Shown: piece after piece, positions 19,585 through 60,011 of the stretch
Position numbering within the stretch: the first letter of the stretch is position 1
How the letters are laid out: every line of letters starts with the position of its first letter
NCBI GenBank assembly: GCA_009760855.2
Contig: WPIO01000288.1
Location: 1-64,000 of the forward strand
DNA from: Cristatella mucedo
Lineage: Eukaryota; Bryozoa; Phylactolaemata; Cristatellidae
DNA: 64,000 nucleotides
Direction of reading: 5' to 3'
Notes under the pieces: generated by a model
Told to the model about the DNA's origin: nothing
What the model saw: only the letters and a program-made list of their open reading frames with translations
Database searches by the model: none
Translations under genes and position numbers: made by a program

Positions 19585-19891
19585 TTAAGAGCCATCGCCC
19601 ACCAGTAGCCTAGATCCTTGCCATTCAAGCTTGTTGTAGTCAGTGCGGCCATCTATTTCAGCAGACGCCGAGGCAGAGGTCGGGTGTAGAGAAATGTAGG
19701 GAACTAGTCCCACAGTAGTAATTGGCTGGCTAAGGGATTCCATTTCGCTATCATTTTTGCCCGTTCTAGTGTAGTCTTTAATGTCCTCATATATGTGCAT
19801 TTCGTTTTCATCTGACGTCATCTGCTTTTCTGGAAGTTTCTTTGAACGCTTCAATACGTCCATGGGGTTGATCGGTTGACCATTGATGATT
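19585..19891 (-). CDS. Last exon: cytoplasmic tail with ITIM/ITSM-like motifs
   Basis: The acceptor TTACTTTTTAG (ends 19892) opens an exon that begins with one base completing a codon (phase 2) and runs 101 codons to TAA at 19587-19585. The product is hydrophilic with four tyrosines: MHIYEDI (Tyr about 34 of the exon, YxxI, close to the pYEEI type bound by Src-family SH2 domains), DYTRT (Tyr 40), LVPYISL (Tyr 65, an exact V-x-Y-x-x-L ITIM) and RTDYNKL (Tyr 85, T-x-Y-x-x-L, ITSM-like). Lysine-rich sequence (KRSKKLPEK) lies near the start. Spacings between the YxxL/I motifs do not fit an ITAM. In other animals such tails recruit SHP-type phosphatases; that use here is inference. Confidence 0.8.
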
Positions 19892-21774
19892 CTAAAAAGT
19901 AAGTTCCTAATACAATAACAGTTACATAAAATTTGCTAGATTTCATGAGCTACGAATAACCCCATAGCTTTAGAAATAAGCAGCCTCACCATTGAAATGA
20001 ATTTGCACAGAATTTTTCAGATTATTAAGGCTCTTTTAGTTGTCAAATAAGTTTGAGCGCTTGAATTTTCCTTGAAGAAAATTCGCACTAAAGTAGGATT
20101 AATAATAAAAAGTGTTGTTTTGTTCAGAGAAAATGAAGAATATAATGTAAAAAGTATAGATTAAGAATATCTGCAAATCACGGCAAAAGAAGCTATAACC
20201 AACCGTCGAGATTAGCCAAGGTATTACGACACGACAAACATTTAAAGGCCCACAAAAAGCAAACTAGGCAGCTGGCTAATTGGGAGTTTAAATTAGTCCC
20301 ATGCTCTGACTTGCATTCCTACCCAGGGAGCTCCGGGAATAGGCACGTACCATTGGGCGAAGGGAAAGCTCAGCAAAACAGATGCGTCTTTGACTGTAAT
20401 TAAAAATGACTTAAAGTCAATCCACAGAGATTATGGCCGGACGGGTAGTCAGACTTTTTTACAAATCACAAAATGTAAATAAGATGACTAAGATGACGCT
20501 GGAAAGCATGAAGAAATTACATTTTTCAATGAATATTTAATTTTAGTGGGCGTTATTTCTCTAAAAGACTCCTTGAACTTTTCTGACCAAAGATGTTTTA
20601 TTGTCATCAGATCTTCACCAAGGTTAATTATTAGTTATACAGTTATTAATATATCAAGAATTAAGGCACATCACTGAGCAGGTATCGCATATGCCACTGC
20701 TTGAGTAGGTCTGTGAGAATTTCTCTTCAAGTATTCAATGCGACGAATACTATTACCTGAAAATGTTGTATGCTGAAGGCGACTTAAGATTGGGCATTAA
20801 TTGTTACCTTGATTGTGTTGAATTACTGGACTCCACCATTTGTACATGGAAGCAGTGGTCAATATGATTTCCCTTAAAGGCTTCTAGTTTTCGAACACAT
20901 TGAAAACTAAGTAATGAAAAAATACCTTCACTTTCTTTATCAAACTTTAATTACCACGAAAGCCACAAATAATGTAAGTACTCAAATTTAAAATATGATA
21001 AAGGCGATTACAAGTAACCAATAAGGAGGATACTTTCCTTTTTTTTAATTTTAAGCCTAGAATATCTCAGAATAGCTCGCTGTAGATCGTGCAATATTTA
21101 TTTTTACGGTCAAGGGATAGCAAAAATACCTTTCACATGCATTTCGCCTAATCACTAATTAATAATGCAAAAACCAGATTAATAGTATTTTTAAAGATTA
21201 AGGTCACAATCTCAACACTATTCGAGGAAATATGGAAATGTGAAATGAGATGCGTTTCACTCAATAAACTAAAACGAAGTCAGGCTACACTTAGGATTTA
21301 ATTTTATGAAGTACCAAGTCCAATGGGAGGCGATAACCAGCCTTTAAAGGAATACATAATACGAGTTTATTAATGAAATCTGTATAGTGAATATTAAAAT
21401 CCAAAAGCATCATACTTGCTCGCTAAAATATTTTGCAAGCTATTTTTATTATTACTATGGGAATATGAGAGTTTGTCGACTGCAGCTAAGCCTCAGAGCG
21501 AGCTTACTCAGGTATTTCTGCTCAGGGGATTTACAATAACGGGCATTGCACAAGTATCAGGTGTTCTCTTACTAATCGTCTTGTAGGAGCTCTTTAGAGC
21601 CTCTAATATCTTTATAGATCAAATTTATGGAAAGCCGGAAGTTAAGCACACAAGGCAGTACGCCCGAAGCTTTTTTTGAAACGTTAAGCTACTCGGCTGG
21701 GCAATTATACCCGTCATATACACTACTACCTGCAAGTAACCCTTCCAAAATGTCACCAGCTTCTCAAATTCTTA
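19892..21774. other. Intron sequence, no element recognised
   Basis: About 1.9 kb of AT-rich sequence without open frames of note or copies of families A, B or the SINE. Confidence 0.5.
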
Positions 21775-22605
21775 GCACATAATAATAATAATAATAATAA
21801 ACTTGATAATGCGTCCTCAGAGAACTCAATCTCTTTCTAGGGGCTTTACATTTTCTGCAAAGGAAGCACGATCGCATGGTTATTGGTAGCACAAACAATA
21901 AGCAACAAGAATAAAATGGTTAGGGGTGACATGTACAGGGTCAACATGCAAGTTTTGTTCGCAGCAGCATGCAGAGTGTCAGCACGCATAAGCACATAAA
22001 TAGCGAATGACAGGGACTCACTACATGCTGTGATGACTAGGTGTGTTTTTAATTTCCTTTTAAATGTGGTCAAGTGAGGGAATGTCTTGACGCAAGTCGG
22101 GAGTGAATTCCATGCTTTGGGAGCATACAAACTAAAGGCACGGTTACCAAATGATTTGAGGTTTATACGAGGTACGGGTAAACATTTAGATTGCGAAAAG
22201 CAGGTCGTACGATGCTTAGACTGGTGAGGCAGTAGATCTGAAAGGATGTCAACTAAGCTAAATGTAGATTTAATAAACTCCTCCCAAAGCACACCCCAAT
22301 TTAGAGCCTAGAAAGAGATTGAAATCTCTGAGGGCGCATTATCAAGTGTATCATTATCATTATTATTATTAACAGTTAGACTCCGCAAAGGTGATAGTAG
22401 CAAGCTTAGCCTGGTAAGAAAGTAGTGCTGATAGTTAGGCTGAAGCCAAATAATGAAGATATCTAAAAGTGAGCGACGAAATCTTGAAGTCGATGCAGAC
22501 AACCTGTAGCCAGCTTAGGTCGGCAATAAGTGGTGTGACATGGCAACTGTGCCGCTCACGACAGACTAGCGTTGCTCCAGAGCTTTGAACCACGTGTAAG
22601 CGCCT
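21775..22605 (-). mobile_element. LINE family B, interrupted copy
   Basis: An (AAT)n tail at 21780, the GATAATGCGTCCTCAGAGAA terminus, 3' UTR and the ORF end (YAPKAWNSLPTC, open at 22292-21846) run on the minus strand to about 22270. After a 60-base plus-strand B tail the minus copy resumes at about 22360 and ends near 22605 around the CHVTPLIADLSWLQ block. Frames are broken. Confidence 0.8.
22296..22356 (+). mobile_element. LINE family B tail inserted inside the minus-strand B copy
   Basis: AGAGCCTAGAAAGAGATTGA, AATCTCTGAGGGCGCATTAT and an (ATT)n run in the opposite orientation to its host. Simplest reading: a 5'-truncated B of about 60 bases inserted into an older B. Confidence 0.65.
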
Positions 22606-23766
22606 CTCGAAACAAAGACTAAAGCAGCACGCCGAATGTGAGCCTCTAGTAAAGCGTCTGCAGCCCACTTAAAAATATAGCAGCTTCCTATAAATTGTCG
22701 CGGTGAAATGTACTAGAAATAGTAGAAAATAGCCCCTGGAATCAGCTTTACAAGCATCCAGAAGGTGTGCCTCTGTAAGAAACACCAACAATGCCCCAAT
22801 TTAAGATTGCATGCAATTCTGAATAAATTATTTTTCTCGGATGCTTTTAGGGACACAATCTAAAGAGGATGAATTTTGAAGAACCACTTTAAAGAGCCTA
22901 AATCTGCCTCTCAAGTGCTGAGTGTCCGTGAGATTAATGTAGCCTCTCCTAAAGAAATAACGTCAGGCTTTCATTGAAGAAATCCTTTGAAGCCACCCCT
23001 TCTGATATTTTTAATAATTAATAGAAACACACGAGAAAGCTTAAAAATGTAATGCCAGAATCACCATAGGTGGGATCTCTACGGAGTTTTGATACAACTC
23101 CATTACGCTAATTTAGAGATTAATTGTAATTCCATTTGGTATTATAATCCAATGAAACCAAGTAAAAATGAACCATAGCGCCAGTCTGTAACTGATGCAC
23201 CAGTGAGACTTCTCAAGGAACTTAAATTAAACAAAGGAATAACTAGTTGTAGAACTGGTCAATATCCTGACTTTGATAACAAGAGTTTTATCTAAATGAG
23301 GGAGTAAGAAGAAATGTAAAAACAGAAGACATAAGGTTTTGATTTAACTCAGAGACAGAGTGGAGAGTTATATCGATCAGAAAGCAAGTTTGGGAAGTAG
23401 ACTTAAATTCTAGCTCACAAAATAAAACTAAAAAAAGCTAGCTTTTATCGAAAGAAAAATCACGTGGAAATAGCGATTTGTGGAAGAGAATCTCTCAAGT
23501 TTTAGTTGTAAGGCACCGGCGGATCTCAGTATTCAAGAATTACGAGCACCATGGATAACAATTTCAATATCGGTAGGACTAAAAAGGATATTTCATTAAT
23601 TAAGTGTGCTATTTTCTCGCGTCATTTAGGTATACCGGCACTTCAATAAGGGATGCCAGATTTTATGTAGTTTATATGATCGGTATTTTTTCTTGGCAGT
23701 TTTTCTGCACTAGGTAAAGATGATTAGGCAGGCATTCATTTTTGTGACTCCGTGTGATTCGTCTTT
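22606..23766. other. Intron sequence, no element recognised
   Basis: About 1.15 kb of AT-rich sequence without a recognised frame or repeat. Confidence 0.5.
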
Positions 23767-24224
23767 TGTATCTCCGTCTGTAACTCCGCAAAGTCATAAA
23801 GACCACGTGGGTGTTACGCAGGAGAGTTTTTGTCTAGCTCACTCACAGCCGAAGCGGCTTTCGGTACGCATTAGGTAGCCAACAGACTTCGTCTCACGAA
23901 GCAAAGAGAAAGTGGGAAGTATAGCAGAGTCAGGAGAGCAGTTGAGGTAGTGAGTAGCGTGGAAGTAGCAGCTCAGGACCGCTGAAAAGGATGAGCCGTA
24001 GTCGGCAGTAGGAAAGTAGATGTCGTTGCGTAAGAATTGTGGAGGAGAGTTCCACAGTCTTCGACCTGCAGAGCTAAAGCTTCTGTCGCCAACGGTCTTT
24101 AAGCAGAGGAAAGGAACCGCTAATTTATCGTTCACATAGGACCTGAGGGCACGAACAGGCTGAAACTGGTGCAGCAGTTCAGCTAGGTACGAAGGAGCCA
24201 AGCCGTGGTGGGCTTTTGTGCACT
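23767..24224 (-). mobile_element. LINE family A, 3' end copy
   Basis: The minus strand encodes the A C-terminus in an intact 120-codon frame (24201-23839): APSYLAELLHQFQPVRALRS, SAGRRLWNSPPQFLRND, then the 3' UTR ending at TATCTCCGTCTGTAACTCCG. The copy is 5'-truncated at about 24224 and lacks an obvious ACATT tail. Confidence 0.88.
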
Positions 24225-24334
24225 AATGCATGCTGACTCTGTGGCTGGAGATACTACAAATTTCTACATGCTTGATATCATTACCAACGTTACCACTAAT
24301 CACGTGATCATTCTTGGTTTACAGCATCGGTTGT

Positions 24335-24424
24335 AGGACCTTCCCCTTTGACGTTCCTTCCCCCTGACATCCGCCCCCCTGGTGAACCCTAGGACATTTC
24401 CCCGGGGTTGGACATTTGCCCCTA
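24335..24424. repeat. Degenerate array of C-rich GACATT/GACGTT units
   Basis: Successive units read GGACCTTCCCC, TGACGTTCCTTCCCCC, TGACATCCGCCCCCC, AGGACATTTCCCCGGGG and TGGACATTTGCCCC. Each joins a GACRTT/GACATC core to a run of C, with a period of roughly 15-22 bases. An (AT)n run follows at 24454-24479. Confidence 0.6.
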
Positions 24425-24614
24425 TGTTGATAAATGTATAACTAAAATACAGAAATATATATATATATATATATATATACATGGTTAAGTAAAGTTCATG
24501 CTCTATTAAAATAAAGTCGACTCAGTATAATAGGAGGTATGGATGCTAAAAAAGGATGGTTTCTAATAGAGTGAGCGGCTGCAGTTTTGGCGGCTGGTGC
24601 AGCCACGAGCTATA

Positions 24615-25990
24615 ATATTAAGAATAATAGTAATGCACTTGATACAGCACCTGCAGAGAACTCAATCTCTTTCTAGGTGCTTTAAATTTGTACCAAAGGG
24701 AAAAGCGATTGAATGGTGAGTTATATCATGCTTGAAAAACAACATGAATGGCATGGTTGATGGTGACATGCACAGGGTCAGCTTGCGAGTTTGGTTATTG
24801 GCAGAATGTAATGTATCAGCACGCATAAGCACATGAAGGATGAATCAAAGGGACCCATTTAATGCTGTCCTAAATAAGTGTGTTTTCATGTTCTTTTAAA
24901 GTGTGGTAAAGTCAGGGGATGCTATGACGTAAGTCGGGAGTTAGTTCCAAGCTTTAGTAGCATCCGAACTAAATGCATGGTCTCCAAAGGATTTGAGGTT
25001 TATACGAAATGTGGTCCAGTCAGGGGATGTTCTGACGCAAGTCGCGAGGGAGTTTCAGACTTTGGGAGAATACGAGCTAAATGCACGGCCTCCAAAACAT
25101 TTGATGTTAGTACGAGGTATCGGTAAACTGTTGGAGTCCGGAAAACCAGTGATACGATGCTTGGCCTGGTTGGGGAGTAGATCTGAGAGACATGGCTAAA
25201 GCAAAAAAATGAAGTGACCTAAAAGTGAGCGACAAAATCTTGAAGTCGATCCGTTACTTGAATGGGAGCCAGTGCAGGTCGGCGAGAATTGGTGCGATGT
25301 AGCAACTGCCACGCTCAAGACAGATAAGCCTAGCTGCGGAGTTTTGCACCAGCTGTAGTCACCTGATTGCACATGCCGGTAGGCTGGCAAGCATTGAGTT
25401 TCTGAAGTCCAGACCGGATGTCAGAAATGCATTGACCAACTTAGACGAGGTATCCTTATTTAAACAGGCTCAAATTTGAGCAATATTACGTAGCTGAAAG
25501 TAGGCAGACTTGACTGTAGAGCTGACATCTTCGTCTAAAGAGAGGCCACTTTGGAACAGGACACCTAGATTTCGTGGTAATCCAACAGGAGATATGCTGG
25601 CAGAGCCACTTTTGAGCGTCAGCCATTCTAATTTCTGAATCAGACTGGCTTTGCCCATAACTAGTAAGTTAGTTTTGTCATCGTTTAGTTTTAGAAAATT
25701 TGCTGCCATCTATGCGCGGATGTCATCAATACAGGAAGCGAGTGAGTTGAGAGAATTTGAGGTGCTCGTCAGCTGGGAGGGATCAAAGCAAAGGTACAAC
25801 TGAGTGTCATCCGCATAAAAGTGAAAGCCTGGATCGTGCTTAGCAATCAAATTAGCAAGAGTGAGAGTATAAACAATGAAAATAACTGGACCTAGCACGG
25901 AGCCCTGAGGTAATCCATATTTCAGAGGTACCTCTGATGATCTTTGTCCACTCACGTCAATACTCTAGAGTCTCCCACTCAGATAGGACC
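24615..25990 (-). mobile_element. LINE family B, 1.4 kb copy with RT catalytic box
   Basis: From the tail (TGATACAGCACCTGCAGAGA at 24640) the minus strand carries the 3' UTR, C-terminal region and RT palm. Two open pieces, 25955-25710 and 25709-25470, encode [30 protein letters not shown], then MAANFLKLNDDKTNLLVMGK. It is 5'-truncated in the RT. The 3' part contains a tandem duplication of 108-base period (about 24903-25118). Confidence 0.9.
24903..25118. repeat. Tandem duplication, 108-base period, within a B copy
   Basis: The block GTGGTAAAGTCAGGGGATGC ... GATTTGAGGTTTATACG is followed by a second, diverged version starting GTGGTCCAGTCAGGGGATGT. Other B copies have it once. The two halves differ at many sites, so this is an old duplication or a recombination between two B copies. 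Confidence 0.75.
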
Positions 25991-26479
25991 TGAAACCTCG
26001 CCGAGCGTTAGAGCGCTATATATAAAATAACCAGGATAACACATTATTTGTCGTTTATACGTGTGAAGTAAGAAACGGAAATCACTGGTCACTGTAAATA
26101 ATTGCAAATAGAAACCATGCAGATGCATTCAAGCAGTATACAAGGAACGGTCTAACTAATTAGATGGTCATATAAAGATCAACGAATTTAAGTTGGGAAG
26201 AGAGAAAGTCTTGAACACTTAATCAGACCCAGAAAAACACTGATATCAGAAACAACACTTTGTAGTATAGATATCGATCGGGACAAAGATATGCACGTGG
26301 TCCGATAGAAACTGTAAAATTATAAATTACCACGTGCAAGTGGCTTTGATAAATTCACCAAAAATTGAGTGTTTTGGAATACAGATTGATTTTATATTTA
26401 GTTATTTGGACCCACATTTACGCCACAGCTTGAAAACCTCGTAGTTGCCCTTCTACCAGTCCAAAAATAGTAATCATAT

Positions 26480-27445
26480 TACTTTTGCAGAGCAACTTTA
26501 GACGACTTTAATCTAATCTTGTTCTAGGCACTTTACAAATAGGAGCATGATCGGAAAGTTAGTGGTGACATTCGAAGTATCAACAAGCAATGTATAACTA
26601 GAAATAATATGCACTATGTTGACCATTGACTATAATTAGTGGTAGCACGCACAGTGTCAGCACACATAAACTCACAAAGAAAAAACTTACAAGACCCAAA
26701 AAACTCTTTAAGACATAGACGTGCTCTTAGCTTTTTTCTAAATGCCGTCAACTTTGGAGATAACATGAAATTAGTCGCAAATGAATTCCATATTTTGGAA
26801 GCATACGAGCGAAAGGATTTCAGGCTTGTTTGAGGTGTAGCTACACGATTTGATTCAGAAAATTGAGTGGGACAATGCCTAGCTAGGTAGAAGACTGGTT
26901 ATGGTAGGTTGGCTAGAGCCAAAGAATGAAGTTCAAAATATGTACATATTAATTGATGTAATCGTATTTAATTTAAAAAGTTTTCTCGGTCGTGATTCGG
27001 TCCAGCTTTAGTCTTCATTCTTTTCAGAAAGTAGCCAGGTCTGAACTGTGAAGAGAAGTGAAGAAAGTACAAAGCTGAGAGGTAACCCAATCTTCAGGGG
27101 TTTCTCTGATAATCTGTTTCCGTTCAAATCAATACTTTGGAGTCTACCACGAAGCTATGACTTGAACCATTGTAGTATAGTGCCAGTGATGCGCAGGCAA
27201 GATGTGAGGAACTAAGAAGGAGGGAGATCAATATCAGACGCTGCTAAACGATCAAACGGAACAAAAAGAGAGACTTTAACTATGTTGGCATTCCCGAAAA
27301 GGTCGTTATACACCCGAAGCAATTCTAAATCTGTTTAGTGATCAGCTCTAAAACCAAACTGAAACCTATGTGCTTGGCTTGATGATTATATACAAGAGTT
27401 TAGTTGGATAGTTACAACTCGTCAAAGTGCCTTAGACGGGACAGC
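26480..27445 (-). mobile_element. LINE family B, old diverged copy
   Basis: Minus-strand matches to the B 3' UTR (26480-26700), ORF end (26700-26930) and RT palm (27050-27440, including a remnant of the GVPQGS region as CAGAGGTTACCC-like sequence in antisense). It carries many indels and has no long frame. Confidence 0.65.
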
Positions 27446-29667: not shown

Positions 29668-30048
29668 GAAAAAACATGACCATAGCCACAGCTGACGCTG
29701 CCACAAATATTATCACTGCCGAAACAATTGATACCATGGGTTGAAGAGCCATATGTTCTACAGAATCTGTCAGAATGGCATTACTTGATGCAGCTGGGTC
29801 ACTTTCAGTTGTCAGAAACATTACGGATACGCTTGATCTGGTCACCATGTTTGTGGCTATGCATACAAAAGACAATCCGGCTTCCGTAGTATTGATTAGA
29901 TAATCAGGTCCTTTGGCAGAAATGAATTCTTTCGGCACTGACCAAAAGTATGATGCCTCTGGATAGCTCTCTATGTAAGAACTGCAATTTATTATTGCTT
30001 TTGATCTGTAAACCGGTATTCGCACAATGCTCTCTTTTGCGTAGATGT
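29668..30048 (-). CDS. Exon: third Ig-like domain plus transmembrane helix
   Basis: Acceptor GTTTATTTTACAG ends at 30049; donor TTC|GTAAGT is at 29668/29667. The 381 bases are phase 1 at both ends. The Ig fold is marked by Cys about 21 (IINCSS), Trp about 35 (YFWSV) and Cys about 62 (SFVCIATN), which gives a short C2/I-like domain. N-glycosylation sites are at NCS and NTT. A Ser/Ala/Thr-rich stalk follows, then a hydrophobic helix at residues about 103-126 (PMVSIVSAVIIFVAA and onward to MFF). The arginine-rich micro-exon comes next, so this domain is membrane-proximal. Confidence 0.85.
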
Positions 30049-30849
30049 CTGTAAAATAAACACATGGAAAGTAGGAACTCTGCATAACAGGAACTTCATC
30101 ATATTTTTGGGTGTATATAAAACCACCAAAATCCGCAAGTTCAAAACTTAGTACTAGTAAAATTTCTACAATCTCTGGTCAAAGCTCAAAGTTCTGTCAA
30201 TTTACCCGTTTTCCATATCACCTGGGCCAAGGTTAAGATCTGTCTGACTAACATTGACTATCTACTTTGGTCATACATTTAAGCCACGTGTCTCAGAACG
30301 TGGTAGCTTGTATAGAAGGGATAGCATTGCGTCCAATTGATACATTTGAAAGGAATGTGGCATATAGTTGCAGTTGTTCTGTCAAATTTCTAACTGCGAG
30401 CTCTTACAATCAATACTTTTTGCCTAGAAATTCCCCTATTTCAGCTCAAAATATAAATTTGAGTCGTACCTTTTCAAGAAACAGACTCTTTATTTGCACA
30501 CAATTTTTATTTTTGTAAGGTTGACTTAGAAAATTCCAGCCTGGTAATTTATATTTAACTTATAGGCATGCTTTCAGGTTTTTTGTAAGAGTGAAATGGC
30601 TGCTTATGATAGCCAAATAATCTAATAGTAGGTTTTTTATTTAGCACTCTCAGCGAAAAAAAATATTCGTTTTTTAAGACGCGTGACATTCGTGGAAAAG
30701 GAAGCACTTAAATTGGTTTGTCTTGTATTTCACTATTCTGTTGAGATCAAATAATAGACAAGCTTATCTGGTGAATATGAATTTTTGAAACATTGATCGA
30801 CTGAAAACATTAAAATTTAAACGTTTTAGCACAAAAGTTCAGTAAATGT
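30049..30849. other. Intron sequence, no element recognised
   Basis: An 83-codon plus-strand frame at 30267-30518 is Cys-rich but has no flanking splice signals or domain I recognise. Nothing else is seen. Confidence 0.45.
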
Positions 30850-33100: not shown

Positions 33101-33104
33101 CTTG

Positions 33105-40520: not shown

Positions 40521-40605
40521 GTACATCCCCATCATAGAAGACAAAAAGTCCTCCAGACCCTATTTCCTCTGTCCTACTTGTACGATGCATTGATCTGCTG
40601 CTGCA
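40521..40605 (+). mobile_element. LINE family B, linker-region fragment (right part)
   Basis: AAGTCCTCCAGACCCTATTT followed by GTACGATGCATTGATCTGCT matches the B copy at 44.54-44.59 kb and continues the fragment interrupted at 39815. Confidence 0.6.
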
Positions 40606-41932
40606 GCACATATATAACAATGACATTCTACGTGGCAACGACGACGGGAATGTCACTGCCCTAGCTCTGCTAGATCTGTCTGCTGCCTTCAACACCATTG
40701 ATCACGAAGTTCTGCTTGAACGATTGAGAATAACGATCGGTCTGGCAGACGAAGCACTGGCGTGGTTTAAATCATACTTGTCTGATCGTGTTCAATCCGT
40801 GTCGTGTGGGGGTCAGGTCTCAGACATGAGAAGGGTCACCTGTGGAGTCCCTCAAGGGTCTGTACTTGGTCCCTTGCTGTTCTCCATTTATACGCAACCT
40901 CTGGGAAAAGTGATTAAGGCCCATGGAATAGGATATCACTTCTATGCTGACGATACTCAGTTGTATTTGTCATTTAAACCGTCGGAATCTGCTGCAGCAA
41001 CTGAGAAACTGAATGCTTGCCTTGCCGATATTCGATCCTGGATGTCGGAAAACTTCCTGAAATTAAATGACGATAAAACCAAACTGCTTCTAATAGGACA
41101 CCCTGAGCGTGTGGCTGGATTAAAAGGCTTTGCTGTTCTAATAGGTGATGCTATTGTGCGACCTTCACCACGTGCTCGTAATCTAGGTGTCGTGTTCGAC
41201 AGCTGCATCAATTTCAAAAGCTTCATTCAGAAGACTGCTTTTACAGCTAGCCATCACATCCGATCCCTATGCAAGATTAGAAGCTGTCTCCCACAGTGGC
41301 TTGTAAAAAATTTAACTAGCTCTTTAGTTCTGTCTCGGCTTGATTAGTGTAATTCCCTTTTGGCTGGGCTACCAAAGAAAGCTATTATGCCACTACAGTG
41401 GACTATGAACATAGCTGCAAGGCTGGTCTTCAAGTCCCAGCGGTTTAAACACGTGTCACCTTTGCTGAAAGAGCTAGAATGGTTGCCGGTTGAGCAAAGG
41501 ATACAGAGCCAAGTGCTTATGCTGACCCACAAGGCCCACCACGGCTTGGCCCCTTCGTACCTAGCTGAACTGCTGCGTCAGTTTCAGCCTGTTCGCGCCC
41601 TCAGGTCCTGTTTGGACAATAAATTAGCTGTCCCATTCCTCCGCTTAAAGACAGTTGGCGACAGAAGCTTTAGCTCTGCAGGTCCCAGACTGTGGAACTC
41701 GCTTCCACAATTCTTACGAAACGACAACTACTCTCTAACTGCTGACTATGGCACATCTTTTTCAGCGGTCCTGAAATGCTACTTCTATGGTACTCACTAC
41801 CTCAAATGCTCTCCTGACTCAGCTATGCTTCCCACTTTGTCTTTGTTACGGGAGACGAAGTCTGTTGGCTACCGAATGCGTACCGAAAGCCGCTTAGGCT
41901 GTGAGTGGGCAATACAAAACTGTCCTGCGTAA
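40606..41932 (+). pseudogene. Truncated family A reverse transcriptase, one in-frame stop
   Basis: Lacks the endonuclease and the RT N-terminus. Reads [82 protein letters not shown], then TAG at 41345-41347, then GLPKKAIMPLQWTMNIAARL to RTESRLGCEWAIQNCPA. A motif Asp in the first RT block is Asn (AFNTID in place of AFDTID), so it would be inactive even without the stop. Confidence 0.88.
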
Positions 41933-46838: not shown

Positions 46839-46844
46839 TGTTAT

Positions 46845-48282: not shown

Positions 48283-48561
48283 GATTGACCGATATTTGCT
48301 TTCTTGTACTTGCAGAAGGTAATGGGTGGTTAGTTGCCGTGCAAGTTACTATCGCTAGATGAAGATCCGATGAAATATTCATTGAGAGTGATGCTATTTC
48401 CTTTCCTATCGCACCATAGTGCAAATTGAACCGATTGATAAATACAGAGAGGCTGAGCTCGGCTGGAGGACGACCGTTAAACGCTGAGCAGTTGATGTAG
48501 GCAGTATCGTCTTCGTCGTAAACGAGACGATTAAGCAGGATTATTGGCACATCCGGGGGAA
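48283..48561 (-). CDS. Exon: second Ig-like domain
   Basis: The minus-strand acceptor CTTTTGTAG ends at 48562 and the donor AATC|GTAAGT is at 48283/48282. The 279 bases (93 codons) are phase 1 at both ends. The domain has Cys about 24 (YINCSAF) and Cys about 73 (VTCTATN) with 48 residues between. The Trp normally present after the first Cys is missing (AELSLSVF stands there), and the usual Tyr two residues before the second Cys is replaced (AIVTC). N-glycosylation sites NCS and NIS are present. Open throughout. Sitting between the V-like exon and the TM exon, it is the middle domain. Confidence 0.83.
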
Positions 48562-50540: not shown

Positions 50541-52400
50541 CAGCACTCCTTAAGCGTTTCTTTATTCGTGGTATGACTTCCTTTCCTGACCTAGTGACTC
50601 AGTCATACATATCACTTCCTTTTTGTGACCTTGCAATTAACTCCTTTCTAGCTTGTGGGGTATAGAACTTTATTCTTTATCATGAGGTCCCCCACATAGT
50701 CTTTATTAGCTGAAAGCCAATCAGACTACGTTGCTGTTGAGCTTAAAAGGCCGTTAAAGGCCAATTGACAATATTTTTTCAAATCGGACAAAATGACTTC
50801 ATTTGAAACTAGACAGTGAACGTCAGCCGTTTAGTCTCACGGAGAAATCAGCTGAGATAACAGGGGTGTGGAATTAGTGATTCAGAGTTGGCTAAAAGAA
50901 AAGAGATGTCGTCGCCAGAGAAATTTAGATGGTAATCGTCATTCTACAATTTCCTCAAGAAAAAGTTGTGTCTCCCAACCTAGGGTTTGTTCGAATGAAT
51001 AAAAAACACGACCATGTATTGGTTTGAGATAAACTGCGACACGAAGAGGCTGAACAAGTTATAGCATTTTAGCTAGTTATTAAGGACCCAATACATGACA
51101 TGTTTGTGGGGCGGGTACACAATTTTTATTGGTATACAATAATCATCTGGAAGCCATCAGAGTTTGTTTCGAAATAAGGCGCACAGTTAAATTTTTTTAA
51201 ATAAAGGTTTTAAATATGGTTTTCATTAAGTGTGCGTTGTACCTTTTTGGATAAATCTTGCAAGTCAATAGCGATTAGGCTACCCTGAAAGTGTAATGCT
51301 TGTTATCATAGAGCATGCTACCACAAACCATTCGAATATACATCCTTCGCAGAATATGTAATGTTCCTACAAATGGGTTAATTTCTTCGAGGGTGCTATC
51401 TAACGTGCTAAGAATCTATCGTAGCCAAATATGTTTAAAAAATATAAACTGAACAGAAGCAGCAGGCTTCAAATTGTTTTAGTTTGCCTAAGTAACGAAG
51501 TCACAAATCCTGGGCATAGATTGAGCGTATTTCCGAGCAATGAAGGCAGTCCTATAAAAACTTGACACAATTAGGTGTTCATGAAAAATATCATCTGAAT
51601 TTCCTGGGAGAAAAGCTTGTCGGTAAGTTTGTGGCATGCCTTGAAAAGCCGCTGGGTTGTAAAATAATTAAATGTAGGCAATTTCATAATTCCACGACCG
51701 ACTCTCAGCTCATTAAATATACATTTTATCATCCATCCTATGATTTTAGTGGTTTGAATGAAAAAAGCCATGTGTGACAGCATTATGACCGATACCTCAA
51801 GCTTGCAGGACTTTCCTTGGAGAATAGATTTAAATAATCTGCAGCAAAGCAAGGAAAAGATCCAAAACTCTACCGAACCAAGCTTGAATAATCCAAACAT
51901 CCGATGAATGAGGCTTAACCATAATTTTAAATGTTTCGACACAATCTTGTTCGGTTCTATTTAGTAAAGCTTCATAAGCCATTCCAATCCCAGTACTAAA
52001 TTGTTAGACAAGACATTGCGATGAATATTATTGCATCCGATGGATCAAGAAATAGCAAGAAATTGGCGTACCTATAAATATCAATTCGAAAAAATTAATT
52101 TGATAATGAAAAAACGAAAAGTATTGTCCCGTGAGATTCTACAGAAATTGTCAACATTTTCTATTAATAATTGGCATACAATCTGCTTAGTCATAGCATT
52201 TTTCGAAAATCCTTAATAGAAACTAAAAGTGGCAGTCTGCGTGATAATTTCCAGGGAATTAATCAAATCCAGGCTTTTTAAGTATCCTTCGGACAATGGC
52301 AGATTTGACTTTAACTGGAACAATCCTTTATTAAATCCTTCATAAAGTCTGTGAGCTACGGCTAGGTTTAGTTTTTCTCCCACAATAAACTAAAAAAGGA
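50541..52400. other. Intron sequence, no element recognised
   Basis: About 1.86 kb. A 123-codon minus-strand frame (51942-51571) is Lys/Phe/Leu-rich without a recognisable domain and looks like chance AT-rich frame. A possible very decayed B tail lies near 51340-51410. Confidence 0.45.
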
Positions 52401-52404
52401 TGGA

Positions 52405-52492
52405 GTAGGTTTGCAGCAAACTTAAAGCGCTTAGAAAGAGATTGAGTTCTTTGAGAACGCTTTATCAAGTGCATTAATATTAGTGTTATTAG
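52405..52492 (+). mobile_element. LINE family B, 3'-tail-only copy
   Basis: TTTGCAGCAAACTTAAAGCG, CTTAGAAAGAGATTGAGTTC, GCTTTATCAAGTGCATTAAT. Confidence 0.85.
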
Positions 52493-52687
52493 GTTAGAAT
52501 TCTTCCAGTACAGCGTGAGTTTTAAAAGTCCCACTTATCTTACTATTACATCCATTGAAGCCTTGGAAATATTCGTTGGAGATTGCAGGTAGCGATTTAA
52601 TGCGAGTAGCTTGTGGAGGAGGTCATATGGAGACAATAATATGAGCTCACTATAACGTTTAGTTTCTAATAATGTAACAATAAATTC

Positions 52688-52880
52688 ACATAGCGCCTTC
52701 CAACAACATAGCATCTTTCTACGCCCTTTAATCCTCTGAATAGGAAGCATGATAATATAGTTAGTGAGAGATACAGTGTGTCAGCTTGTCTACAGGTGTC
52801 AGTACAGTCAGCCCTGAAATGATAACTATGAAGGATTCAGCAAATGCTTTGAGGAAAATGTGCTTTTTAGCTACCCAATA
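52688..52880 (-). mobile_element. LINE family B, decayed 3' end
   Basis: AGCGCCTTCCAACAACATAG, TCTTTCTACGCCCTTTAA and later GATTCAGCAAATGCTTTGAG align with the reverse-complement B 3' UTR at low similarity. Confidence 0.5.
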
Positions 52881-53055
52881 ATTGTAGTTAGGAAAGGGAA
52901 TACTTCGACGCTATTCATGCACGATTTAGATGTTTCGAAGATATGCAAACTAAAAGTAGAATCTTCATTGGTTTCGAGGAACAGCCTAACGAAATAAATA
53001 ATAATGATAGGTGCCATATTTCTAATAAATCGAGAGGCTAAAGGAGTTGTAATGT

Positions 53056-53170
53056 AAGATATTGTAATGTATCTCTTTCTGTAACTCCGCAAAGCCACTA
53101 AGACTATGTGGGTGTTTGGCAGGAGATTCTCCTATAGTCCACTAAAAGTTTAGGCTTCTTTTGGTGGTTT
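53056..53170 (-). mobile_element. LINE family A, 3' end fragment
   Basis: TTGTAATGTATCTCTTTCTG, TAACTCCGCAAAGCCAC and TAGTCCACTAAAAGTTTAGG match the reverse complement of the A 3' UTR with its ACATT-type tail. Only about 110 bases remain. Confidence 0.7.
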
Positions 53171-54086
53171 GGCTCCTTAAGCTCCTTATATTGGCGGTTT
53201 GGACGAAGAATTAGAAATTACAAAGGCTATAGGAAATCACATTACCCTCAATAATGTTATTAGGCAGCAAGCGGTAGGCTAAACCCAATAATACGGCTTT
53301 TAAGCAATAATTACATTCAAAGTTGGTGCCTTCGTGCAAATCCTTCATATCGGCATCTTATATTGGTTGGTAGACAAGGTATAGAACTTAAATCCGCTGC
53401 AAGGCAGTTAAATTGCAGGTATCTCTCTTCGCCGTATCACCAGAAAATATCGGTTGATACTTTCTTTTAATATTTGAATGATTCAAACGTGTCTGTAGCC
53501 TACTAGGATTGAAGAAACAACGAATACAAGTAAATTCACTTCCCGAAAAATAAATTGTCAGTTATGTCGAGGATTTTACTGCCGTCTACTAATGGACGAC
53601 TCTACGAGTAAAGTTTATTGACATGACTTGCTGATTCTCTTGGTTCCCAGCTACAGTGCAAAGCTATGTAAAAAAGCAGGCTTGCTCATTGAAGGGAAAT
53701 CTTCAAATTATTTTTAACGGGAGCGTTGCGACAGATATAATTACAGTGAACTGGTTTAAAAGAGGTTGAATATAGTACGCAAAGAAACAGTGAAGCATTA
53801 AAGGGGTAAGTCAGCCAAATTATTGAAGGCGGAGAGATAAAAAAGTATTACAACCACATTAAAAGTTTGTTAGTAAATATCATTCAGTGATTGCCTAAGC
53901 CTCATAATTATACGAAATGGCGATTGGCCTGCTCAAATTCTGCTATCGTGACAGGGAGTCATGACATTGGAAGTGCACCTCTGAAGCTGCTTAGCACATG
54001 TTATTTCCAAATTACTTGCTCCTCAGAAACATACTGATTTATTCTTTTTTTTGAGCATGCTACCACGTAACAGATTCAGCTGCGAT
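53171..54086. other. Intron sequence, no element recognised
   Basis: About 900 bases with no frame or repeat recognised. Confidence 0.5.
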
Positions 54087-54087
54087 T

Positions 54088-54172
54088 CAGGTGCGCTTTT
54101 TTGTAGCAAATATGAAGCGCCTAGACGGAAATTGAGTTATCTGAGGGTGCTTTATTAAACGCATCATTGTTT
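54088..54172 (+). mobile_element. LINE family B, 3'-tail-only copy
   Basis: TTTTGTAGCAAATATGAAGC, GCCTAGACGGAAATTGAGTT, GGTGCTTTATTAAACGCATC, ending where family A sequence begins. Confidence 0.75.
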
Positions 54173-55186
54173 TTCACTCAAGCCGTCAAAATCTGCAGCA
54201 GCAACTGATAAACTGAATGCTTGCCTTGCCGAAATTCGATCCTGAATGTCGGAAAACGTCTTGAAACTACATGAAGATAAAACCAAAGTGCTACTCATTG
54301 GACACCCTAAGCACACGGCTGGGGTAAAAGGCTTTACTCTTCTAATAGGAGGAATTTTTGTGCGACCATCACCTCGTGCTCGAAATTTTGGTTTTGTTAT
54401 CAACAGCTGCCTCAATTTTAAAAGCTTCATTCAGATTACTGCATCAACAGAACGCCGTCACATCCGATCCTATCAAAGAATAGGAGCTTTCTTCCAAAGT
54501 GGCTTGCAAAACATTTAACTAGCTCCTTGGTTCAGCCTCGGCTTGATCACTGCAATTCCCTTTTGGCTGGTCTACCAAATAAAGCAACTAGGCCACTGCA
54601 GCTTACTATTAATATGGCTGCAAGGCTAGCTTTCGAGTGCCAGAGGTTTGAGCACGTGTCTTTATTGCTAAAAGAGCTAAGATGGATTCCGGTTGAGACA
54701 CGGATACAGAGTAGAATTCTTACGCTGATCCACAAGGCCCGCCACGGCGTGGCTACTTCGTACCTAGCTGAACTGATGCACCAGTTTCAGCGTCTTCGAA
54801 CCATCAGGTCATGTGTGGACAATAAATTAGCTGCTCCCTTCCTCGCTTAAGGACCGTTGGCGACAGAAGCTTTAGCTCTGCAATTCCTAGATGGTGGAAC
54901 TCGCTTCCAGAATTATTACGCAACGACAACTACTCTCCTACTGCCGACTATGGCTCATCCTTTTCAGCGGTCCTAAGCTGCTACTTCTATGCAAATCACT
55001 CATCTAAACCGCTCTCCTGACTGCTATATTTCCCACTTCCTTTGTTGCGTGAGACGATGTATGTTGGCTACCAAATGCATACCGAAAGCCGCATAGGCTT
55101 TGAGTGGGCTATAATAAACTGTCCTGCGTAACAACCACATAGTCTTTACGGCTTTGTGGAGTTACAGAAGCAGATACATTGCATTA
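54173..55186 (+). mobile_element. LINE family A, 1 kb 5'-truncated copy
   Basis: Starts just past the RT catalytic box (TCAAGCCGTCAAAATCTGCA) and carries the A C-terminus in two open pieces, 54246-54518 (LKLHEDKTKVLLIGHPKHTA) and 54527-54850 (RLDHCNSLLAGLPNKATRPL ... GVATSYLAELMHQFQRLR). The 3' UTR follows to GAAGCAGATACATTGCATTA. Moderately diverged from the young copies. Confidence 0.88.
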
Positions 55187-56010
55187 AATCGTTGTTATTA
55201 AAATTTATAATCTGTAAATTCCATTTTTCTTTCACGTAATTAGAATTCAGTCTGAAAGTACTGCAAACGATTCACGATTTATGGCGTTGCGGTTCTGACG
55301 TCATTAAAAGGTTTACTGAACAGGGGTCCAATAGAAATATGAGATAATGCTAGGCTGACTGTCACTCTTGCGAAAACTCTTGAATGTTCTTCCGTTATGC
55401 CTTTTTTAGTAAGTCCTAAATAACGTAGCTGATAGTCCAATATATTCAGGTTAAAGTACCCACTCTGCTTTTATTAAAAGGCATTCAAGTCGTCCTGGAA
55501 AATGTGAACATGAGCAAACATCAAGTATTTTAAATTTGAGAGGTGTTTTGTAAGGCATAGTTAGACATAAAAACCTGAAAGATGGCTCTTAGTCGTCAAG
55601 TTAGTTATCACCGTGAAGGCCTTGAACCACTGGACCAAAAGGTTCCCATCCAATAAGACCGTCATCTTTGGCTTCTGGTCTTGTACTTGGCATTTATCCG
55701 TTGCCTTTCAAAACGTTAAAATCTTTAAAAATTCCTCGCAGCCTTTGCTGAAGAACTCTCTTCATTTTGAAAGTAAACTTTCGCATATGCAACAGACATA
55801 TAATCCGCTAAGTAAACTTTGACTTACGACACTTCCGCAATTGGAAATGACAAACGGAGTTTGGTTATCATATCTCCATTAGCATCTGCATGATAACTGG
55901 GTATTGGAGGTCAAAATGATATTACAGTAAGCGAACATATCAGCTACACTATTCACCATTGTTAGCTCAGTCTTGTTGAACAACTTAGGAAGATACGCGA
56001 TCTGCTCAAC
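55187..56010. other. Intron sequence, no element recognised
   Basis: About 820 bases, AT-rich, no recognised feature. Confidence 0.5.
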
Positions 56011-56011
56011 T

Positions 56012-56360
56012 TTTAGCTTCACGTCTTGACCTCTTTAAGTTCCTAAATGCCAGAGCAATACAAAGCTGGCGGTTATTGCTAATTCAGCCAGATTTGTCTG
56101 TCATAAGCATCACAGTTGCCACACTATGCCATTTCCTACCTGCCATCACTAGTTCTCTATCAAGCAATGCATCGACTTAAAGTTTGTGTCACCTAATAAA
56201 GCACCCTTGTTTACTTGCTATTGCTTGCCAATCCAAAATACTTCACAATTTTGATAGGCATCGTGCAACCTGCTGTACTGACTAAAGTGTCTTAGATGTT
56301 TTCCAACATAAAAATAAATCTTTGGTAGACCACGTCTTTAGTTCATCTGCCTATTATTCC
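56012..56360 (+). mobile_element. LINE family B, decayed internal fragment
   Basis: CTTCACGTCTTGACCTCTTT, GCCAGATTTGTCTGTCATAA, CACAGTTGCCACACTATGCC and TATCAAGCAATGCATCGACT follow the order of the B ORF around CHITPLL. Frames are closed. Confidence 0.6.
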
Positions 56361-56582
56361 CGGAGGTAACTCGCGAACGAAATACGACGATTTGATATGA
56401 CACTACTCCTCGTATCAATAGCTGGATTCATACTAGCTGTCCAGTATTCGTGGTTAAACATATTAAGGATGAGCGTGTGATCCCAAAATGAATGATTCTC
56501 TTTAGGGGCAGCAAATTTAAAATTCTCAGAATTAAGAGCATGTTTTCTCTGGGTACTGTACATATACGTCATTATTAGGCGA

Positions 56583-56772
56583 ATTATAAATAAATAAATA
56601 CCAGCTGATTAAACAGCCTCTTTTTTATAGCGACAAAAGAGCCTTTATGGCTATCCCCACCGCTTGCAGTGGCGATAAAGGATCGTCCACCACAGGAATC
56701 AAACCTACAACCTCGATACCCAGGTCGTGAAGGCAACTGCCTTACCAAGTGTGCCATCACGGCTAACCAATG
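56583..56772 (-). repeat. tRNA-derived SINE, near complete
   Basis: On the minus strand: TTGGTTAGCCGTGATGGCAC, ACTTGGTAAGGCAGTTGCC, CACGACCTGGG, the B-box-like AGGTTTGATTCC, GACGATCCTTTATCGCCACT and a TATTTATTTATTTATAA tail. Confidence 0.8.
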
Positions 56773-57445
56773 ATAGCTGCTATGTGTGACATACGCAATC
56801 GGTAGAATAATGATGGATATTGACTCCTCTTTGTTTCCTTGGGTGCAGGGGGAGCTCTTAAATCATCACACAGTTACTTTTCTCTAGTGAAATCGATCGC
56901 TTATGATCTTATCGCTGGATAATACAGGGGTGTAACAGAGACATACAACCCTAGAGGTCTTTGGGTGACAAAGATGAATGATGCAGGAGGACAGGGAAAC
57001 ATTTTCTGAGACATTTTATATCACTCTCATATCGATTTGAGCATGTTCCTTTTGAAAAGTCACAACGATAGATCTTTTAATGGAAAAATGTGGTGCAACC
57101 AAGCTTGTAATTAGGGCACGCCCAGAAATGAGCTTTGATCAAATTGCTGGCGAGAAATCCAACTGATATGCCATAGTTAGTCTTTGCCAGGAGTCCAAAA
57201 TCAGTGGTGATGCACATATAGAATCTCAGCTCTCGTACATCAGGTGCACAGATTGACAAGTTGCAATCAAGGACTTGACTTCGCGATCTTGCTTGCTGCA
57301 TAGGACCTCAGCTAAATAGATCAAAAATACGCTAGATTTAAGCCTGATTCCGTTATTAACCAAGCCCTGACATACCTTTAGCCTACCATCCACGCTCTTT
57401 CTGAGATATTTTTGGGTTCTCGCTCACATGAACATCTCCGTGTAT
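56773..57445. other. Intron sequence, no element recognised
   Basis: A 74-codon minus-strand frame (57301-57077) contains eight Cys/His-rich positions but no domain I recognise and no matched splice sites. Nothing else is seen. Confidence 0.45.
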
Positions 57446-57446
57446 C

Positions 57447-58022
57447 TGTATCTCCGTCAGTAACTCCACAAAGTCATAAAGACCATGTGGGTGTTACGCA
57501 GGAGAGTTTTGTATAGCGCACTCACAGCTTAAGCGGCTTTCGGTACGCATTCGGTAGCCAAAAGACTTCGTCTCACGCAACAAAGAGAAAGTGGGAAGCA
57601 TAGCAGAGTCAAGAGAGCAGTTGAGGTAGTGAGTAGCATGGAAGTAGCATTTCAGGACCGCTGAAAAAGATGTGTCATAGTCGGTAGTTGGAGTGTAGTT
57701 GTCGTTGCGTAAAATTGTGGAAGCGAGTTCCACAGTCTAGGACCTGCAGAGGTAAAGCTTCTGTCGCCAACTGTCTTTAAGCGGAGGAATAGGACAGCTC
57801 ATTTATTGTCCACACAGGACCTGAGGGCGCGAACAGGCTGAAACCGATGCAGCAGTTCAGCTAGGTACGAAGGAGCCAAGCCGTGGCGGGTCTTGTGGGT
57901 CAGCGTAAGAACTTTGCTCTGTATCCTTTGCTCAACCGGCAACCATCCTTGCTCTTTCAGAAGAGGTGACACGTGCTCAAACCGCTGGGACTTGAGGACC
58001 AGCCTTGCAGCCATATTCATAT
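57447..58022 (-). mobile_element. LINE family A, 3' end copy
   Basis: TATCTCCGTCAGTAACTCCA at the 3' end, then the minus-strand C-terminus in two pieces (57733-57494 and 58077-57799; the latter runs past the element): HVSPLLKEQGWLPVEQRIQS, APSYLAELLHRFQPVRALRS. Truncated at the NMAARLV block, about 58022. No ACATT tail. Confidence 0.87.
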
Positions 58023-59150
58023 GCAAGCACGACCTCCATATAAACATGGACAACTGTCCGACGGAAAGAATGTTCACAAAGTGAATATACCAAATTCTAC
58101 GTATTATCCACCAAATCGCAAGAGAAAGTAGCTATCGAAAGATTTAATTCTCTCAGAATGCTATATTCCAGTAAATGTTTACTATTACTTATCTAATTGC
58201 ATGTTTCAGCTGGCAAGCGTCGTTGCAGCTGTAAAATCTGACTGAAATAATCAATTGCATCACCCTATAAACTGACCGGTAAATTTGAAGTTAATATTGA
58301 TGCTACTCTCCTTAAAAATTGATAGATTTCAAAGTACTGAATTTTTTTAAAAGAGATTACAGCAGCTTCGGAAATAAAGTCCCAAAGCTAATAGAACAGA
58401 GAATGCGATGGTTGCTGATCCAGGCAGACGCTTGAAAAATGCTGGTTGGTGCTTATGCAATTTAGCGTGCCGTTAGAGCCTTAATTTAATTGTCACACCT
58501 TATTTTAACAGTAGCAGAGCATGACACTAAATAAAAGCACCCACGTCTTGATAGAAGAAGTCAAAGTCACTAATTGAAAATAGTCTAGTCTATCTGCACA
58601 CGCTGTGATTAGTCCAAAAAAAGAGTACGACTCTCTAACTAGGAGCCCAGAGTTAAATTGCCCTCTATCAGTCTTATTTTAATTTTCCTTTACCGTTTCC
58701 ACAGATTCTAAAATATCCTCGAACAAATCGCAAAATTAATGAACATTTAATAATTTAAATCACATTCATATTCTAATTCCTTTGCTAGAATAATTTTTAC
58801 TTGCTCTACTTCAGTTCCCTAGTTGACTAGGTTAAGAGAAAAATAACAGTAAAATTCAGAGTACAGTTGATAACTAAGCTTTGCCATGTCGTTATTGTTT
58901 GATATAGCAAGTGTAATAATAATAATGACAATAATAAATATATAAAACGTCTATTGGGTCGTTTTCAAAGTACCATTAACTAACCAAGCATCTGACCGTG
59001 GTCTTTAATTTCAGTGTGAAGATGGGTGCCCAAAGGAGTAGCTTGCCGAATAGTGTCAGTGTGCTTGTCAATCTAATGCTGTTTTCAGTAAGCTTAGTGA
59101 AACCGTAGGTGCGTAAATATTCGATCGCGCCACTTTACCACCGCCACTAG
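58023..59150. other. Intron sequence, no element recognised
   Basis: About 1.1 kb AT-rich sequence. A very weak B-tail-like stretch lies near 58125-58180. Confidence 0.45.
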
Positions 59151-59151
59151 G

Positions 59152-59325
59152 AATGCAGGATATAGGTAAGGCGGTAGCTTTCACGACCTCGGACCCGAGG
59201 TCGCGGGTTCGATTCCTGCGGTGGGCAATTCTTTATCGCCAGTGCAAGTGGTGGTAATAGCCGTAAAGGCTCTTCTGTCACTATAAAAAAGAGGCTAGTT
59301 AATCAGCTAGGATTTATTTTATTTA
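59152..59325 (+). repeat. tRNA-derived SINE, best-preserved copy
   Basis: GGTAAGGCGGTAGCTTTCAC, CGACCTCGG-ACC-CGAGGTCG, the B box GGGTTCGATTCC, then TTTATCGCCAGTGCAAGTGG, TAATAGCCGTAAAGGCTCTT and a TATTTTATTTATGAAA tail. The arm between the A and B boxes forms a long perfect hairpin in place of a normal 5-bp anticodon stem, so it is not a functional tRNA. Confidence 0.85.
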
Positions 59326-59654
59326 TGAAAGCTCCGCTTGCGCTAGGAGTATTCCCTCTGGAAAAGCTTTTACAATGCATTTTTTCTTCCACGAGCAACT
59401 TTTTTATTGGTAGAAATGTTAGATCTTAAAAAACTGAAAGGTTAATCATAAGTCGATGTTATCTATAGTTTACTTAAGGATATGTGGTTTGAACCAAAGT
59501 TTGATGCTAATTGGTGAGGAAAGACTTGTTTTACATCGCACAAACACCATGTTTTATATCGGAAAGCATATTTTATCAAATGAAAAACCAATGAATAAAT
59601 CGTAATTGCCACAGAATGATGGAGCCTCTGTAAATTTATCAGGTTTATACTTAC
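59326..59654. other. Intron sequence, nothing recognised
   Basis: Short AT-rich stretch between the SINE and the Ig1 donor site. Confidence 0.5.
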
Positions 59655-60011
59655 CTAATATTGATAGAGCAACCTTTCCGCTTACACTCGTTTTGGTTTC
59701 TTGGCCAACAAGGTATTCTATTCGACAGCTGTAATCTGTCTCAGATGACCTGTTTATGGGAACTATAAATGTAACGTTCTGTAATTCACTGTTACAGCCG
59801 AGCATTTTAACTCTTAACGGCATGACACGGTCGTTAGAACTGCTAAATGATCCAGTAAATTTACACTGTAGAAAGCTGTCACTGCCGCCGGTCCTATTGT
59901 GAGCTGTAAGCCTCATGCTCCAAATATTTTTTTCAATCTGAGTCGTACAACTAAAGGTCACTCTACTTCCTGCGTATTGAGTCGGAGGATGTATGTGTAT
60001 GTCCACCAGTC
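59655..60011 (-). CDS. Exon: first Ig-like (V-type) domain
   Basis: The minus-strand acceptor is a long T tract ending TATAG (60012); the donor is TTAG|GTAAGT at 59655/59654. The 357 bases (119 codons) are phase 1 at both ends, typical of Ig exons. Landmarks: Cys about 21 (VTFSC), Trp about 30 (NIWSM), Cys about 95 (TDYSCRIEYL) with 73 residues between, the spacing of a V-set domain, and a strand-G-like KVALSIL. A second Cys pair (about 49 in FLQC, about 72 in LGC) could add a disulphide. Glycosylation sites NRT, NVT and NRS are present. Open and unmutated, it is the outermost domain found. Confidence 0.83.

What the first reader, a model, noticed from the sequence alone, without database searches (positions are those of the whole stretch)
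19585..60011. Split Ig-superfamily receptor gene hidden among LINEs
Five minus-strand exons spread over 40 kb join in frame (phases 1,1,1,2) into a three-Ig, single-pass receptor with a signalling tail. Every splice site is consensus, every exon is free of stops, and no LINE cuts an exon although the introns are saturated with them. That contrast suggests the gene is maintained. Architecture resembles inhibitory immune receptors and cnidarian Alr-type allorecognition proteins; the relationship is inference.
Basis: partly seen in the sequence, partly recalled or inferred. Interest (0 to 1): 0.88.

Follow-up and report, generated by a model that had tools for sequence, protein, structure and literature searches.

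The report
Animal immunoglobulin-type receptor gene
This stretch holds most of a probably real animal gene for a cell-surface receptor of the immunoglobulin superfamily, perhaps signalling through tyrosines in its tail; it is a new example of a familiar kind of gene, and a link to allorecognition is not shown.

Summary
Five minus-strand exons join with phases 1,1,1,2 into 448 stop-free codons ending in TAA. This exceeds chance: three non-repeat, phase 1-1, exon-like loci of 270 nt or more lie on this strand, against a mean of 0.1 (maximum 1) in 60 shuffles. The product is a type I membrane protein: three Ig-like domains, one membrane span, a basic stop-transfer and a tail with YEDI, VPYISL (ITIM) and TDYNKL (ITSM-like). 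The Ig assignment rests on weak matches; no Pfam model reaches its cut-off. No signal-peptide exon was found in the 4 kb upstream.

Better: LINE relics in these introns carry 46 stops in 3513 codons; the exons carry 0 in 447. No relative was found in a database of 5.8 billion proteins by a word-based search, so membership of the cnidarian Alr family is unsupported. The species is unknown and its genome could not be searched. I rate it a divergent, possibly inhibitory IgSF receptor of a known kind.

The parts
59655..60011 (-). Exon 1: V-like Ig domain D1 (residues 1-118); Cys 21 and 95 spaced as a B-F pair, extra Cys 49 and 72; F-strand-like motif DYSC; phase 1 in, phase 1 out
   Evidence: found by unbiased scans; no Pfam hit alone; weak antibody light-chain match E=0.3; single-sequence fold too poor to use
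48283..48561 (-). Exon 2: C2-like or FnIII-like domain D2 (VPPDVP linker, Cys 143 and 192, no Trp); phase 1 in and out
   Evidence: found by the looser scan, missed by the strict one; aligns with the D1-D2 region of Roughest; predicted seven-strand beta sandwich, pLDDT 62, structural neighbours FnIII and Ig domains
29668..30048 (-). Exon 3: Ig-like domain D3 (Cys 233 and 274, Trp 247), stalk and transmembrane helix (about residues 315-338)
   Evidence: Pfam Ig_2 E=4.5e-4 in the whole protein, below its cut-off, no Pfam hit for D3 alone; CEA and CD276 weak matches; TM hydropathy 2.7 over 19 residues
29541..29562 (-). Exon 4: 22-nt microexon; the codons it completes and contains encode the basic stop-transfer RRRRCRM
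   Evidence: AG/GT sites, changes phase 1 to phase 2
19585..19891 (-). Exon 5: cytoplasmic tail with YEDI (Y380), VPYISL (Y411, ITIM), TDYNKL (Y431, ITSM-like) and the TAA stop; alternative acceptor 15 nt upstream

Best explanation
The exons are the 3' five-exon part of one functional animal gene for a type I, single-pass IgSF receptor. A V-like outer domain on two further Ig-like domains binds a ligand on another cell or a microbe; a membrane span and RRRRCRMR stop-transfer follow; the tail carries three tyrosines in YxxI/L settings. Most likely a Src-family kinase phosphorylates them, with pYEDI as a Src-SH2-type site and VPYISL plus TDYNKL as an ITIM/ITSM-like pair 20 residues apart that recruits an SH2 phosphatase (SHP-2/Corkscrew type) and damps activation. 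Shown: exons, frame, splice sites, hydrophobic span, motifs. Supported but weak: the Ig fold of each domain. Inferred only: transcription, ligand, phosphorylation, partners, cell type, inhibitory sign. My split: a real gene, about 0.93; an IgSF receptor, about 0.88; tyrosine-based signalling, about 0.55; net inhibitory, about 0.35.
For: Consistent frame and splice sites over 40 kb. Three exon-like loci of at least 270 nt against a shuffle mean of 0.1. Purine excess at codon position 1 in 4 of 4 long exons against 4 of 82 control stretches, by a threshold set after seeing the exons; joined chi-square p = 1.6e-6. LINE relics in the same introns: 46 stops in 3513 codons; exons 0 in 447, expectation 5.9, P about 0.003. 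Best solved-structure match Roughest (4of8) E = 2.8e-5, then JAM, CEACAM6, DIP-eta and CD276, all IgSF proteins. Eight ectodomain cysteines, spaced as one B-F pair per domain plus one extra pair. Seven N-glycosylation sequons in 316 ectodomain residues, shuffle mean 3.5, p = 0.04. Three YxxI/L/V motifs in the tail, shuffle p = 0.018.
Against: No Pfam Ig model reaches its cut-off; D1 and D3 alone give no Pfam hit at E of 10 or less, and D2 alone only C2-set_2 at E = 0.19. The fold of D1 failed (pLDDT 44); the D2 model resembles FnIII at least as much as Ig, and no Foldseek match reaches E 0.001. Codon-position bias is significant alone in exons 1 and 3 (p 0.04, 7e-7), not in exons 2 and 5 (p 0.17, 0.07). 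No relative found among 5.8 billion proteins, so dN/dS and exon order could not be checked. No 5' exon, start codon or nearby polyA signal found. At least one strict ITIM occurs in 18% of shuffled tails. YxxI/L may be only endocytic sorting signals.
Confidence: 0.55

Rival explanations
1. An adhesion or axon-guidance IgSF protein (Roughest/Kirre, JAM, DIP or nectin-like in behaviour) whose tail tyrosines are YxxPhi endocytic or scaffold sites, with no immune role.
For: The best solved-structure matches are Roughest, JAM, CEACAM6 and DIP-eta. YEDI, YISL and YNKL all also fit the YxxPhi sorting motif (motif recalled). A single strict ITIM is not rarer than chance.
Against: The best match covers mainly the D1-D2 region; conserved adhesion families should be easy to find in nr/UniRef, and this protein found nothing. 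High divergence is commoner in recognition receptors (general knowledge).
Confidence: 0.3
2. An Alr-type or other allorecognition receptor of a colonial animal.
For: Alr proteins are single-pass IgSF proteins with polymorphic ectodomains (PMC11067881, passages); ITIM/ITAM-type motifs are reported on Hydractinia candidates and in Botryllus FcoRs (PMC12065747, passages). Same gross layout here.
Against: No sequence match at E of 10 or less; no paralogous exon in 64 kb, whereas most Alr genes are clustered (in Podocoryna 22 lie in the complex and 8 elsewhere); taxon unknown; no polymorphism data.
Confidence: 0.07
3. A recently dead gene or a mix of exons from separate genes that happen to be phase-compatible.
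For: No transcript data, no 5' exon found, a LINE relic starts about 200 bp after the stop, and no polyA signal nearby.
Against: 0 stops in 447 codons against 5.9 expected at the decay rate of LINE relics in the same introns; coding bias in the four long exons; the microexon supplies exactly the needed phase and a basic stop-transfer.
Confidence: 0.07

Closest known systems
Oyster CgIgIT2 (Crassostrea gigas; PMC11999971, passages read)
   Same: Multi-Ig, single-pass receptor of an invertebrate with tyrosine-based motifs in the tail
   Different: CgIgIT2 has five Ig domains and an ITAM; here three Ig-like domains and no ITAM by pattern; no sequence relationship found
Oyster CgSiglec-1 (PMC5877582, passages read)
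   Same: Invertebrate Ig-domain recognition protein; the cited paper's title gives it inhibitory activity on apoptosis, phagocytosis and cytokine release
   Different: Two I-set domains reported; sialic-acid binding was not testable here
Botryllus fester co-receptors FcoR (PMC12065747, passages read)
   Same: Type I receptor, V-type then C2-type Ig domains, tail with ITIM and core YxxI/L/V motifs
   Different: FcoRs also carry a sushi domain and belong to a family of 53 loci paired with fester genes; neither seen here
Hydractinia Alr1/Alr2 family (PMC11067881 and PMC13119343, passages read; the defining PNAS 2022 paper was not held)
   Same: Single-pass IgSF membrane protein; V-set and I-set domains are reported for Alr (PMC11999971, passages)
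   Different: No sequence match found, no gene cluster in the window, taxon unknown
Drosophila Roughest (PDB 4of8)
   Same: D1-D2 region aligns, E = 2.8e-5
   Different: Best match covers residues 19-155 only; D2 alone drops to E = 0.11; Roughest is a five-Ig adhesion protein (recalled)
Vertebrate PD-1/BTLA-type inhibitory receptors (recalled, no call)
   Same: ITIM followed by an ITSM-like motif some 20-25 residues on
   Different: Those have one Ig ectodomain (recalled); the second motif here ends in L rather than V/I

Membership tests
Immunoglobulin superfamily | Recognisable Ig-domain profile | tested here: inconclusive
   Ig_2 E=4.5e-4 and ig E=0.0029, both below gathering cut-off, next to a bacterial MHYT at 0.07; single domains mostly no hit; IgSF chains are the best six of eight PDB sequence matches
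Immunoglobulin superfamily | A suitably spaced cysteine pair in each domain | tested here: met
   Cys 21/95, 143/192, 233/274; both D2 cysteines fall in predicted strands; the disulfides themselves are not shown
Immunoglobulin superfamily | Ig-type beta-sandwich fold | tested here: inconclusive
   D2 model seven strands, pLDDT 62, neighbours both FnIII and Ig; D1 model unusable; D3 not folded
ITIM-bearing inhibitory receptors | Tail motif S/I/V/L-x-Y-x-x-I/V/L | tested here: met
   VPYISL at 409-414, but 18% of shuffled tails also have at least one
ITIM-bearing inhibitory receptors | Phosphorylation and recruitment of an SH2 phosphatase | not testable with these tools
   Needs a bench test
ITAM receptors (CgIgIT2 type) | YxxL/I-x6-12-YxxL/I in the tail | tested here: not met
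   Pattern absent
Hydractinia-type Alr | Sequence homology to known Alr proteins (BLASTP over 50 bits, as used in PMC13119343) | tested here: inconclusive
   No hit in a database including nr and UniRef, but that search needs shared 5-residue words and no Alr sequence was compared directly
Hydractinia-type Alr | Membership of a clustered multigene family | tested here: inconclusive
   No paralogous exon in the 64-kb window; the rest of the genome could not be searched
Hydractinia-type Alr | Signal peptide | tested here: inconclusive
   No signal-peptide exon found in the 4 kb upstream; the 5' end may lie outside the window
Hydractinia-type Alr | Polymorphic ectodomain | not testable with these tools
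   No population data

The most novel reading that the evidence does not exclude
This is a member of an undescribed, fast-evolving, lineage-specific family of animal recognition receptors. Its tail would combine a Src-SH2 site (YEDI) with an ITIM/ITSM-like switch, as an independent invention of NK- or PD-1-style checkpoint signalling in a poorly sampled phylum, possibly for self/non-self recognition.
Probability: 0.12. Interest if true: 0.6.

Novelty: new member of a known kind. Interest (0 to 1): 0.3.

Why it matters
If confirmed, it adds a divergent receptor with checkpoint-like tail motifs to the scattered set known from oyster, Botryllus and Hydractinia. It also shows a practical point: genes diluted in tens of kilobases of LINE-rich intron, with exons of 22-381 nt and sub-threshold Ig domains, can be recovered by joint phase, splice and decay tests when profile searches fall short.

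Tried and rejected
Upstream signal-peptide exon in 60012-64000, minus strand, strict and relaxed: 0 candidates. Further Ig exons: a cysteine-pattern scan of both strands found exon 1 only (it did not recover D2 or D3, so it is weak). Paralogous exons in the window: tblastn of exons 1, 2, 3 and 5 gave nothing better than E 0.18 besides themselves. Other exon-like loci: two more on the minus strand and two on the plus strand, without evident Ig features on the minus strand; the plus ones were not examined. Pfam on ten other window ORFs of unknown nature: nothing better than E 0.024. Protein relatives of the joined product and of exon 3: none at E of 10 or less. Exon 3 in genome contigs and exon 1 in viral contigs: none confirmed. 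Naming the organism through its LINE: only the 8000 candidates sharing most words were scored and the best 120 of 7925 listed. The closest are unnamed metagenome proteins (90% identity over 64% of the query and 77% over 66%, both JGI; then about 60%). Viral and genome collections gave nothing. Rfam and tRNA scans: none. Fold of D1: pLDDT 44, not searched further. Alr, FcoR or CgIgIT2 membership: not established. The LINE-avoidance argument was set aside as weak. Papers on sponge ITIM receptors and gastropod ITAM IgSF expansions: listings only, nothing direct seen. Other listings.
Full report
What is there. On the minus strand, five blocks join as described: 60011-59655, 48561-48283, 30048-29668, 29562-29541 and 19891-19585. 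All four introns are GT-AG, with donors GTAAGT (three) and GTATGT (one); phases are 1,1,1,2; the join gives 448 codons including the final TAA, with no internal stop. Exon 5 has a second in-frame acceptor 15 nt upstream. Exon 4 is a 22-nt microexon; without it exons 3 and 5 would not be in frame. If the exon 3 donor is not used, translation ends four codons later, which would give a tailless form.

More than chance. A scan blind to the finding looked for non-repeat intervals with an acceptor, a pyrimidine tract, an open phase 1-1 frame of at least 180 nt and a fair donor. It found 5 loci on the minus strand and 2 on the plus strand; three of the five are exons 1, 2 and 3 (the exon 3 locus also takes in a weaker acceptor at 30174). 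Sixty dinucleotide shuffles of the non-repeat sequence, one strand, gave a mean of 0.72 loci (maximum 4), and 0.1 (maximum 1) of 270 nt or more. With stricter donors and tract both strands gave 5 intervals: exons 1 and 3, and three within LINE reading frames; exon 2 was missed; 30 shuffles averaged 0.03. Codon position 1 is purine-rich in the four long exons (0.65, 0.57, 0.66, 0.64), with a lead of at least 0.10 over the other positions; 4 of 82 stop-free control stretches of at least 60 codons from the rest of the window do this, by a threshold set after seeing the exons. Taken singly, the composition test is significant for exons 1 and 3 (p 0.04, 7e-7) and not for exons 2 and 5 (p 0.17, 0.07); joined, p = 1.6e-6.

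Is it maintained? Repeats detectable within the window do cover 20,838 of 40,427 bases of the span and no exon base, but the exons are 3.3% of the span. With 19 merged LINE blocks in the span (my count), all exons would be missed by chance with probability 0.53; with 30 insertions, 0.36. A better test uses the LINE relics as a clock: 29 non-overlapping LINE matches inside the span carry 46 stops in 3513 codons, which predicts 5.9 stops in 447 codons; the exons have none, P about 0.003. Nine of the 29 relics have no stop. This supports constraint. It is not dN/dS, because no orthologue was found.

The tail. It has four tyrosines, three in YxxI/L settings: YEDI, VPYISL and TDYNKL. Three such motifs in shuffled tails: p = 0.018; two or more ITIM/ITSM-like: p = 0.02; at least one strict ITIM: p = 0.18. 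No ITAM by pattern. pYEDI resembles the Src-SH2 consensus pYEEI (recalled). The working reading, an ITIM/ITSM-like inhibitory tail, is an inference; endocytic YxxPhi use is the main rival.

What is missing. No signal-peptide exon with a phase 1 donor was found in the 3,989 bases left upstream. The gene therefore starts beyond the window, or its first exon was missed. No AATAAA or ATTAAA lies within 2.2 kb after the stop. The window has no detectable second copy of exons 1, 2, 3 or 5.

Relatives and host. The joined protein and exon 3 alone found nothing at E of 10 or less among 5.8 billion proteins. The LINE search shows that this database contains nr, UniRef and NCBI animal proteins. That search needs shared 5-residue words, so distant relatives may be missed. 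Among the best 120 LINE hits shown of 7925, the closest are unnamed metagenome proteins at 90%, 77% and about 60% identity; the named ones are the coral Oculina and many fishes at 44-50%, and two records labelled as bacteria at 48%. The LINE-filled introns and the gene type point to an animal host (inference); its phylum is unknown. The host genome could not be searched.

Comparison with known systems. Invertebrate receptors of this kind are in print. Oyster CgIgIT2 has five Ig domains, a membrane span and an ITAM (PMC11999971, passages). CgSiglec-1 is described as inhibitory (PMC5877582, passages and a cited title). Botryllus FcoRs have V and C2 Ig domains with ITIM, hemITAM and core motifs (PMC12065747, passages). 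Hydractinia Alr proteins are single-pass IgSF proteins, mostly in gene clusters (PMC11067881, passages), and Podocoryna candidates were defined by BLASTP score, signal peptide and structural match (PMC13119343, passages). The present gene works plausibly like these but was not shown to belong to any. PMC10815962 (passages) mentions three Ig-like domains in the alr2 product, the same number as here, which is no evidence of kinship.

Verdict. It is a divergent IgSF receptor with possible inhibitory signalling, a new member of a known kind. The allorecognition link is speculation.

Noticed in passing
15559-18857 (+): A long LINE copy: endonuclease frame (Exo_endo_phos E 4.5e-10) followed by a 523-aa reverse-transcriptase frame (RVT_1 E 6.9e-30); nearest relative 90% identical over 64% of the query on a short JGI metagenome contig.
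   Followed up: partly
40538-41932 (+): A second copy of the same LINE family, about 90% identical over 430 codons with one in-frame stop, inside the largest intron of the receptor gene.
   Followed up: partly
about 59180-59240: A stretch read on the minus strand contains a tRNA-like B-box phrase (AATCGAACCC, judged by eye), possibly a SINE relic in intron 1; ARAGORN calls no tRNA.
   Followed up: no
60423-60543, 8545-8658, 63882-64000: Dinucleotide arrays (TA)n, (AG)n and (GA)n; the last runs to the window's end.
   Followed up: no
4160-4258: A perfect tandem duplication of 50 bp, about two copies at 100%, probably recent.
   Followed up: no
24323-24520 and 7062-7244 (-): Two further exon-like phase 1-1 intervals from the blind scan, with weaker donors and no evident Ig features; probably chance.
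   Followed up: partly
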